Below are positions 3,786 to 46,549 of a stretch of 64,000 nt of DNA, one piece after another. The stretch is from assembly GCF_000017625.1 (NCBI RefSeq), contig NC_009712.1, forward strand, positions 1,240,001 through 1,304,000, written 5' to 3'. Source of the DNA: Methanoregula boonei 6A8. GTDB lineage: Archaea; Halobacteriota; Methanomicrobia; Methanomicrobiales; Methanospirillaceae. The notes under the pieces were generated by a model. It searched no databases, was not told where the DNA came from, and saw nothing but the letters and a program-made list of their open reading frames with translations. Within the stretch, counting starts at the first letter, position 1, and every line of letters starts with the position of its first letter. A program made the position numbers and the translations under genes.

Positions 3786-3977
3786 TTACCTGAGTATATA
3801 CCCGATGATCACGCAGACAATACCCGGATAGAAGAGAACGGAAAAATACGCCCGTATCTCGGCAGGCAGGAACCCAAGCCCGTTAAGCTCGGGAAGGATC
3901 AGCAGGATAAGGCCGACAATAAAGAACAGGTAGCTGAACTGCGTTTTTGAGACAGATGAAGACTTTCCGGCACTCAT
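3786..3977 (-). CDS. Small two-helix membrane protein
   Basis: 63 residues. A short polar N-terminus (Ser/Lys-rich) is followed by two hydrophobic segments, one around FFIVGLILLILPEL and one at the C-terminal VLFYPGIVCVIIGYIL, giving a helical hairpin in the membrane. AGGGAA precedes the ATG with good spacing. It is followed on the same strand by nothing obvious, and is separated from the next upstream membrane ORF by about 80 bases. No family recognised. It is probably real because hydrophobicity, ribosome site and codon use agree. Confidence 0.55.
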   Translation of the reverse strand: MSAGKSSSVSKTQFSYLFFIVGLILLILPELNGLGFLPAEIRAYFSVLFYPGIVCVIIGYILR

Positions 3978-44709: not shown

Positions 44710-45030
44710 AAAAAACAGGCCGTTTTTTTGGCAACGAATTGTTTAATATTTACGGTGGCATCTCAAAACATTGAATTTGATTTTTTAATAACCTAGTGCT
44801 TAGGTTGCGAGTCGGTTTTTGAATAGGCAGAGACAGTTTCCATTTCGCAGCGCCATCCTGTCCGACACTCCATTTCCCGGACCCGGGCCCATATGAACCC
44901 GTGAAGCTGTTTACATGGTCAAAGGAATAGAGATACCGGTTTGTCCTTTTTGGAATGCATTGGTTCACGATTGATTCTGTAAACAAAAAACATTCAAAAA
45001 AAAGAGAGATACGAATCGTACCCCGGAAGA
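44710..45030. other. Non-coding stretch between metallopeptidase and peptide genes
   Basis: This 321-base stretch is AT-rich at both ends with a GC-rich middle (CCCGGACCCGGGCCC around 44877). Minus-strand frames give a 74-residue tail with natural-looking parts but no ribosome site or start. It may be a gene remnant or the border of transferred DNA. No RNA structure stands out. Confidence 0.3.
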
Positions 45031-45114
45031 TTACTTCTTCTTGGGGGCTGCCTTCTTTACGGCGGGTTTTTTTTCGGGGGCCTTCTTTGCGGCCGGTTTC
45101 TTTGCTGCAACCAT
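45031..45114 (-). CDS. 27-residue Lys/Ala/Pro peptide, histone-H1-tail-like
   Basis: The peptide is built of AAKKP, AAKKA, PEKKP, AVKKA and APKKK blocks, with 12 Lys and no acidic residue but one Glu. This matches C-terminal tails of histone H1 and of bacterial H1-like proteins that bind DNA. GGGAGG lies upstream of the ATG, and a TATA box AAATATTTATC sits 50-60 bases upstream (45165-45178). The stop is followed by A-rich sequence. It is too short for the usual gene callers. Promoter, ribosome site and codon pattern support a real gene; DNA binding is inference. Confidence 0.6.
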   Translation of the reverse strand: MVAAKKPAAKKAPEKKPAVKKAAPKKK

Positions 45115-45164
45115 ATTCGTTCCACCTCCCACCGGAAAGGGTTATAATTTTCATTATTCTACGA

Positions 45165-45178
45165 ATAGATAAATATTT
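45165..45178 (-). promoter_or_regulatory. TATA/BRE promoter of the 27-residue peptide gene
   Basis: On the minus strand CCAAAATATTTATC combines a BRE-like purine stretch with a TATA box. A start about 25 bases downstream would leave a leader of roughly 30 nt containing GGGAGGTGG. The remaining bases to 45504 hold no gene; a minor plus-strand ORF there is a shadow. Confidence 0.45.
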
Positions 45179-45504
45179 TGGTCAAAATGATATTTTCGGG
45201 CATAGAATTTGGATGATTTACCATTTTGTCCATTGGATGCAAAGGGACACCGGAATAGGACCCCAATCTGGAACAATTGGGAGGAAATTGCGCAAACTTC
45301 CTCTTTTGGCCCGGTTTGTCAAAATCGACACACGGGAAGGGAAAAATCCCGTCTCCAAGGTCATCAGGATGCGCGCGCAAAGCCCGTTCCGGGGGTATTT
45401 CTTTAAAAAAACGTTTCCAGAAGTATCATCGGGTCCAGTGTATTATACAACAGAAAATAAAAAAAGATAATCTTTAAGAATACCCGTTGTCCCAGTGAGT
45501 ATTG

Positions 45505-45858
45505 ATGAAAAAGCAGTTTATCATTGGAGCGACCGGGGGGTTTCTTGGGATTGCCACAGCAGCATATGTCATTTTTTTCTCGCATTCCCCGGATATTACG
45601 CTCTCGGGTGTACAGGCTGCCCTTTTCTCCAGCCTTGGCCTGATGGGAGCAGCGATCGCAAATACCGAGACCCGGTTTGCCGGCTGGATGCTTCTGTCTT
45701 CTTCGGTATGGATCCTGCTTTCCGTTCCTCTTGCCGGCACGTTCGATCTCCTTGCCTGGTACCTGCCGACCATCATCCTTCTTGGATGTGCAGCGGCACT
45801 CTGTTTTACCGAGCCGGAGATGGACGAAGATCTTCCTGCAGAAGAAACGGACAACTAA
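45505..45858 (+). CDS. Four-helix membrane protein, unknown function
   Basis: 117 residues from the ATG at 45505 (TTG at 45502 is an alternative). Hydrophobic helices lie around FIIGATGGFLGIATAAYVIFF, VQAALFSSLGLMGAAIAN, WMLLSSSVWILLSVPL and LLAWYLPTIILLGCAAALCF, with an acidic tail (PEMDEDLPAEETDN) on the cytosolic side. No charged residues sit within the helices, so transport is not obvious. No family recognised. Convergent with mrpG. Composition and codon use match the host. Confidence 0.6.
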   Translation: MKKQFIIGATGGFLGIATAAYVIFFSHSPDITLSGVQAALFSSLGLMGAAIANTETRFAGWMLLSSSVWILLSVPLAGTFDLLAWYLPTIILLGCAAALCFTEPEMDEDLPAEETDN

Positions 45859-45950: not shown

Positions 45951-46289
45951 CTATTCTTTTTTCTCCCGGGGGGGCCCGACCGGAACGGCTGCATGGCACA
46001 GGACAACGGTGGCAAGGTGATTGAGCACGATCACAAGCACAAGCATCAGGATCGCACTTATGGAATAGAGCAGATACTGAAGCCCGCCGAAGGAAAACCA
46101 TGCAAACATACCATAGCATATTCCGGCAATGGTCACAAGGGCGGTGGCAAGAATTCCGGCCCGGATTCCGGTAAAAGACCTGCTCCGGATATCCGGGAAG
46201 AGAAGCAGGCCGATCACGGCAATAGCTCCGAATCCCACAGCAGCCAGGAGCAGGAGAGTAATAAGCAGATCCAGCAGCCAGTCGATCAT
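45951..46289 (-). CDS. Mrp-type antiporter subunit G (MnhG/MrpG)
   Basis: 112 residues with three membrane helices. GLLLFPDIRSRSFTGIRAG matches the MrpG pattern G-x2-R/L-FPD-x2-R, and the third helix and Pro-rich tail fit. MrpG is a small subunit of the Mrp Na+/H+ antiporter and of related energy-converting hydrogenases and Fpo-like complexes. The ATG overlaps the mrpF stop as ATGA. The other subunits (A-E) are not beside it, so it may join a complex encoded elsewhere. Confidence 0.8.
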   Translation of the reverse strand: MIDWLLDLLITLLLLAAVGFGAIAVIGLLLFPDIRSRSFTGIRAGILATALVTIAGICYGMFAWFSFGGLQYLLYSISAILMLVLVIVLNHLATVVLCHAAVPVGPPREKKE

Positions 46290-46549
46290 GGGGCCGCCTC
46301 CTTTCTTACCTGGGATATCCTGACGGTTGTTGCAAAAACAATGCAGGCAAGAAGGCCGGCGATAAGGACCACGAGAAGGCTGCCAAGAGCCACAGTCAGT
46401 GCAAGCGAGCCCGCGCAGGCAAGAGTGGTGGCTACGTTAACTGCGATCAACCGGTCATTCAGCGTGGGACCGGGGAAAATGCGCAGTATTGCACAAAGAG
46501 TAAGAAGAAAAAAACCCGCTGCTGCAATAAACCAGATATCAATCGTCAT
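46286..46549 (-). CDS. Mrp-type antiporter subunit F (MnhF/MrpF)
   Basis: 87 residues with three membrane helices. The core FPGPTLNDRLIAVNVATTLAC matches the MrpF signature R-x2-x-GP-x2-DR-x-AV/L-x. It begins with a perfect ribosome site, GGGAGGTGATC, nine bases before the ATG. It precedes mrpG with an ATGA overlap. Isolated FG pairs can complete antiporter or hydrogenase modules of methanogens; which complex this pair serves cannot be told here. Confidence 0.82.
   Translation of the reverse strand: MTIDIWFIAAAGFFLLTLCAILRIFPGPTLNDRLIAVNVATTLACAGSLALTVALGSLLVVLIAGLLACIVFATTVRISQVRKEAAP

What the first reader, a model, noticed from the sequence alone, without database searches (positions are those of the whole stretch)
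45031..45178. 27-residue Lys/Ala/Pro peptide with a strong promoter and ribosome site
It resembles histone H1 C-terminal tails and has TATA, BRE, ribosome site and stop. If made, it is one of the smallest DNA-binding proteins and would be missed by annotation.
Basis: partly seen in the sequence, partly recalled or inferred. Interest (0 to 1): 0.6.

Follow-up and report, generated by a model that had tools for sequence, protein, structure and literature searches.

The report
Conserved tiny lysine-rich archaeal protein gene
A methanogen carries a real, selectively maintained gene for a 27-residue, strongly positively charged peptide that looks like a free-standing histone H1 tail and probably coats DNA or another polyanion in the cell.

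Summary
On the minus strand at 45031-45114 an ATG ORF encodes MVAAKKPAAKKAPEKKPAVKKAAPKKK, with a strong Shine-Dalgarno site, an archaeal-type TATA element and a T-tract downstream. It is a gene, not chance. A matching short ORF is in 30 of 39 genomes of the genus and 8 of 8 of a sister genus, in none of the other 185 genomes of the order, with no hits for the reversed control pattern. Two further genus members carry it cut at a contig end or expanded to 120 aa. Indels keep frame, and pN/pS is 0.18 in frame against 2.08 and 1.63 in the other frames. Promoter and leader are conserved, the upstream neighbour mostly, and downstream genes vary, so it is a single-gene unit. The peptide is five KK runs exactly five residues apart. 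Best reading: a disordered polycation that binds DNA (or RNA or polyphosphate) electrostatically, like the KPAA tail of AlgP or an H1 tail, without a folded domain. Expression and binding are not shown. Tryptic fragments are at most six residues, so ordinary proteomics would miss it. Similar micro-genes occur in unrelated bacteria, apparently convergently.

The parts
45031..45114 (-). 27-aa KAP micro-ORF, ATG to TAA: MVAAKKPAAKKAPEKKPAVKKAAPKKK
   Evidence: conserved in the genus, pN/pS 0.18 in frame
45123..45129 (-). Shine-Dalgarno GGAGGTG, 8 nt before the ATG
   Evidence: conserved at the 95% level or above in the g1 upstream alignment (26 rows) and in all 8 g11 rows, but GGAGGTG was also part of the pattern that picked these ORFs
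45123..45144 (-). conserved 22-nt leader TAACCCTTTCCGGTGGGAGGTG, probably the 5' UTR
   Evidence: 31 of 39 genus genomes at up to 2 mismatches, 0 control hits; alignment
45169..45183 (-). BRE/TATA-like element GACCAAAATATTTAT; a start of transcription near 45142-45147 is inferred from spacing
   Evidence: conserved among 26 upstream regions of the genus while the spacer towards the leader varies; single exact copy in the window
44996..45024 (-). terminator-like hairpin (45024-45006) and T8 tract
   Evidence: two terminator-like sites in the region against 0.9 (sd 0.9) in shuffles, so weak alone
45505..45858 (+). divergently transcribed 117-aa membrane-protein ORF, syntenic neighbour (listed from a TTG at 45502 as 118 aa)
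   Evidence: found at E up to 1e-5 only in the two genera that have the micro-ORF (32 of 108 family genomes)

Best explanation
This is a single-gene transcription unit for a disordered polycationic microprotein, a free-standing equivalent of a histone H1 C-terminal tail. Shown from sequence: a conserved gene with its own promoter-like element, leader, strong ribosome site and stop, under purifying selection as a peptide, built of KK-x-x-x pentads with net charge +10 (range +9 to +13 among relatives). Inferred: it is made in quantity and lies along the phosphate backbone of DNA without sequence preference, neutralising charge and helping to condense the nucleoid alongside the genus's histone-fold proteins. 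Function rests on charge and KK spacing rather than a fold, which is why the same locus can be 24-30 aa in most species and 120 aa in one.
For: Conservation in 30 of 39 genus and 8 of 8 sister-genus genomes, plus a contig-end copy and a 120-aa version. pN/pS 0.18 in frame, 2.08 and 1.63 out of frame. KK starts at 5, 10, 15, 20, 25; spacing 5 in 100 of 135 intervals of 35 distinct peptides; 1 of 200,000 residue shuffles of the window peptide reached the observed spacing. Single-gene unit with varying downstream genes, a feature that PMC7613761 (passages) uses as a criterion for nucleoid proteins. A 112-aa paralogue behind the same leader passes the Pfam cut-off for HC2 (59 against 40 bits). PMC9239181 (passages) states that KPAA-repeat peptides bind DNA in vitro. 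Histone fold in 37 of 39 genus genomes, MC1 in 0 of 39.
Against: No expression, proteomic or binding data. Cationic composition fits RNA, ribosome or polyphosphate partners equally well; polyphosphate kinase is in 38 of 39 genus genomes. Two fairly complete genus genomes (G089, G054) and five less complete ones gave no micro-ORF, so it is not essential throughout the genus or is too changed to be found. The 27-mer itself reaches only 13.8 bits against the HC2 cut-off of 40, and the 120-aa version 32.9.
Confidence: 0.55

Rival explanations
1. The peptide binds polyphosphate (or anchors polyphosphate granules to DNA), as proposed for the KPAA tail of AlgP, acting as a counter-ion or coacervation partner of granules.
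For: AlgP with KPAA repeats associates with polyphosphate granules (PMC9239181, passages); polyphosphate kinase PF02503 is in 38 of 39 genus genomes.
Against: The kinase is far more widespread than the micro-ORF (it is also in 7 of the 14 control genomes) and is present in G089 and G054, where no micro-ORF was found; no genetic link between the two loci was seen.
Confidence: 0.15
2. The peptide binds RNA or the ribosome, as a small basic ribosome-associated protein.
For: Net charge +10, very short, strong ribosome site.
Against: Repeat number and length vary from 24 to 120 aa at one locus and no solved chain matches at E up to 10; a ribosomal protein would be expected to keep its length.
Confidence: 0.15
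3. The locus acts as an RNA (leader or small RNA) and the peptide is incidental.
For: A 22-nt leader is almost invariant in the genus.
Against: Selection is on the reading frame; indels keep frame; no Rfam match at E up to 1; folding z only -1.64; downstream genes vary, so no leader-peptide target.
Confidence: 0.08
4. Chance lysine-rich ORF with chance signals.
For: Short low-complexity ORFs and TATA-like motifs arise by chance.
Against: Conservation over two genera, zero control hits, frame-specific selection.
Confidence: 0.01

Closest known systems
AlgP and PhaF KPAA-repeat tails (Pseudomonas)
   Same: Lys/Ala/Pro repeats, disordered, H1-like composition, repeat number varies; KPAA peptides bind DNA in vitro (PMC9239181, passages)
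   Different: There the repeats are a long C-terminal tail on a helical N-terminal domain (352-aa AlgP); here the tail alone is the whole gene product, with KK pentads
Histone H1-like nucleoprotein HC2 (Pfam PF07382)
   Same: Composition; a 112-aa paralogue behind the same leader passes the Pfam cut-off
   Different: The 27-mer and the 120-aa version are below the cut-off; a compositional match is not proof of descent
Lysine-rich 74-aa candidate nucleoid protein WP_019177984.1 of Methanomassiliicoccus luminyensis (PMC7613761, passages)
   Same: Small, basic, lysine-rich; single-gene unit
   Different: 74 aa, another order; its sequence was not compared here
KAP micro-ORFs of unrelated bacteria and MAAAKPDKK... 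ORFs of Methanomassiliicoccales (loci L116, L121, L153, L162, L119, L148, L149; L129, L146, L147)
   Same: 23-30 aa, MAAAK start, KKK end, purine-rich ribosome site
   Different: Leaders, promoters and neighbours differ from the archaeal ones; probably convergent

Membership tests
HC2 / H1-like nucleoproteins (PF07382) | Pfam gathering score of 40 bits | tested here: not met
   13.8 bits for the 27-mer, 32.9 for the 120-aa version; 59.0 for the 112-aa paralogue
AlgP/PhaF | N-terminal domain followed by a KPAA tail | tested here: not met
   the ORF is the repeat alone, 27 aa between ATG and stop
Archaeal histone or MC1 | histone fold or MC1 domain | tested here: not met
   only HC2 was listed for the 27-mer in Pfam at E up to 1; the genome's histone-fold gene lies elsewhere, at G000:C1:1063162-1063347, and MC1 was not found
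Nucleoid-associated protein (functional class) | single-gene unit | tested here: met
   divergent neighbour upstream, varying genes downstream; by sequence only, no transcript data
Nucleoid-associated protein (functional class) | binds DNA with low specificity and is abundant | not testable with these tools
   needs binding assays and expression data

The most novel reading that the evidence does not exclude
A free-standing histone tail: a 24-30 residue KK-pentad peptide made from its own single-gene unit that acts in trans on the chromatin of an archaeon with histone-fold proteins, and a design reached independently in several bacterial phyla, so that very short KAP polycations are a recurrent, overlooked class of nucleoid protein.
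Probability: 0.3. Interest if true: 0.8.

Novelty: new variant of a known kind. Interest (0 to 1): 0.58.

Why it matters
It would be among the smallest gene-encoded nucleoid proteins: a histone tail without a histone. It is easily missed by gene callers with length limits and by trypsin-based proteomics, since its longest tryptic fragment has five or six residues in all 35 distinct peptides examined. It makes a testable question concrete: how short can a chromatin protein be, and is KK spacing the thing selected?

Tried and rejected
RNA reading: no Rfam match up to E 1 and unremarkable folding. Leader-peptide reading: downstream genes differ between loci. Acidobacterial and Bifidobacterium hits of the wide scan are starts of an acyl-carrier-like ORF of about 80 aa in which the pattern fits by chance (the name acyl carrier protein is recalled from the sequence, not from a call), and several other hits there are out of frame or lysine-poor; I dropped them. 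Of 40 distinct micro-ORFs, five (L119, L129, L146, L147, L149) were dropped from the genus statistics because they come from other groups. Hits inside longer frames were not counted as micro-ORFs; the one scanned against Pfam (L208, 149 aa) is a CMD-domain protein with a KAP N-terminus. The G089 hit is not lysine-rich and the control pattern hit there as well. Within the order of one alphaproteobacterial carrier only 3 of 33 genomes matched; a fourth carrier, L121 in G233, is in that list but its ORF exceeds the allowed gap. Literature: Methanoregula with small protein (listing), lysine-rich / H1-like / archaea / small protein (listing), nucleoid proteins of Methanomicrobiales (none), peptide strings KKPAAKK, AAKKPA, KKAAPKK (listing), chromatinization (listing), Mboo (listing), nucleoid + lysine-rich + microprotein (none), small ORFs in methanogens (listing), H1/KAP in bacteria (listing). 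No title or start of abstract in these listings describes such a microprotein in Methanoregula; I did not read the listed papers beyond the four named next. Read only by term search (passages returned): PMC7613761, PMC9239181, PMC13260811, PMC11456600. One literature search was left unused.

Full report
What is there. The minus strand at 45031-45114 reads ATG-GTT-...-AAG-AAG-AAG-TAA, a 27-codon ORF for MVAAKKPAAKKAPEKKPAVKKAAPKKK. GGAGGTG lies 8 nt before the ATG at 45123-45129, within the leader TAACCCTTTCCGGTGGGAGGTG (45123-45144); GACCAAAATATTTAT lies at 45169-45183; a T8 tract lies at 44996-45003. The genome is a single contig of 2,542,943 bases; from memory this is the size of Methanoregula boonei 6A8, and relatives found by the scan carry the name Methanoregula, but the window's own name comes from no call.

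It is not chance. No other ATG ORF of 20-60 aa in the window (308 in all) has 35% lysine, and 100 Markov windows of fifth order gave none among 49,480 ORFs. A protein search of 39 genus genomes gave short-frame matches over the whole peptide in many of them. A DNA pattern fixing only the ribosome site, ATG, length and the KKK-stop end matched 38 of 232 genomes of the order: 30 of 39 in the genus, 8 of 8 in genus g11 of the same family, none of the other 185, and no hits with the reversed control. Of the nine genus genomes without a match, G103 has the ORF at a contig end and G082 has the same promoter and leader followed by a 120-aa KAP protein. The other seven (G089, G054, G090, G092, G104, G105, G107) gave nothing convincing with a looser pattern; five of them are 66-82% complete, while G089 (99%) and G054 (94%) look like real absences.

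It is selected as a protein. In 35 distinct micro-ORFs of the two genera all length differences are whole codons, and differences per codon position are 0.156, 0.120 and 0.367. Pooled over groups of equal length, pN/pS is 0.18 in frame, and 2.08 and 1.63 in the two shifted frames. Pairs are not independent, and the 26 sequences in the seven groups were chosen by length and similarity out of the 35, so this is a strong indication rather than a formal test. One group of three g11 sequences is weaker (0.59).

It is a unit of its own. In 26 upstream regions of the genus the TATA/BRE stretch and the leader are conserved while the spacer between them varies; genus g11 has its own conserved leader ending in the same GGAGGTGGA. 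The leader is nearly single-copy: 31 of 39 genus genomes match at up to 2 mismatches, none of the other 69 family genomes do, and no control hit appears. The divergently oriented membrane-protein gene upstream is kept at most loci (25 of the 40 loci examined, which include five from other groups and some cut short), Mrp-like genes lie beyond in many, and the downstream genes differ; that neighbour occurs only in these two genera. So it is neither a leader peptide of a fixed operon nor a fragment of a larger gene.

The repeat. KK runs start at residues 5, 10, 15, 20 and 25. Across the 35 peptides the spacing is 5 in 100 of 135 intervals, net charge +9 to +13, composition 43% K, 40% A, 10% P. 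One of 200,000 residue shuffles of the window peptide reached its spacing. The 120-aa version and the 112-aa paralogue in G073 continue the same pentads. Every tryptic fragment is at most 6 residues long in the 35 peptides, which would hide the protein from standard proteomics.

How it probably works. A pentad polycation with no folded domain most likely lies along nucleic-acid phosphates. KPAA-repeat peptides bind DNA in vitro and AlgP's KPAA tail is needed for granule positioning (PMC9239181, passages). The genus has histone-fold proteins (37 of 39) and no MC1 (0 of 39). I therefore favour a nucleoid role (0.55), with polyphosphate (kinase in 38 of 39) and RNA as live rivals. None of these steps beyond the gene itself is shown.

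Elsewhere. A scan of the GTDB-based genome collection with a related pattern returned 67 stretches. Translated, most of the in-frame lysine-rich ones are Methanoregula or Methanoregulaceae/Methanomicrobiales; others are four alphaproteobacterial or 'proteobacterial' loci (L116, L121, L153, L162) that share a leader, a TTGACT-type promoter stretch and a strong terminator-like repeat, single cases in Methylomirabilota, Deltaproteobacteria and Nitrospirae, and three Methanomassiliicoccales or Thermoplasmatales-labelled loci with a related but partly acidic ORF. Their signals differ from the archaeal ones, so independent origin is the simpler reading; with such low complexity, descent cannot be tested by sequence.

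Verdict. The DNA-binding function is an inference. Novelty lies in the tail being the whole gene.

Noticed in passing
L116, L121, L153, L162 (bacterial loci, around the matches): KAP micro-ORFs of 23-30 aa in alphaproteobacteria/proteobacteria with shared promoter-like, leader and terminator-like sequence.
   Followed up: partly
L149, about 130 bases upstream of the micro-ORF at 3881-3977: Two lysine-rich KAP micro-genes in tandem, each with its own GGAGGTG, in a Nitrospirae contig.
   Followed up: no
L208 (G004:C16), 149-aa ORF on the minus strand: Carboxymuconolactone-decarboxylase-family protein (PF02627, E 1e-17) with an N-terminal KAP tail that resembles the whole micro-ORF; frames of similar length with KAP stretches occur in other genus genomes.
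   Followed up: partly
L206 (G073:C55:28800-30800): Second copy of the leader in front of a 112-aa KAP protein that passes the HC2 cut-off: a length-expanded paralogue.
   Followed up: partly
45951-46549 (-): Two small ORFs resembling Mrp antiporter subunits G and F but below Pfam and NCBIfam cut-offs.
   Followed up: no
L129, L146, L147: Conserved 26-aa ORF MAAAKPDKKADKKAAPAKDEKPAKKK (one substitution in L147) in Methanomassiliicoccales/Thermoplasmatales-labelled contigs with conserved flanking genes.
   Followed up: partly
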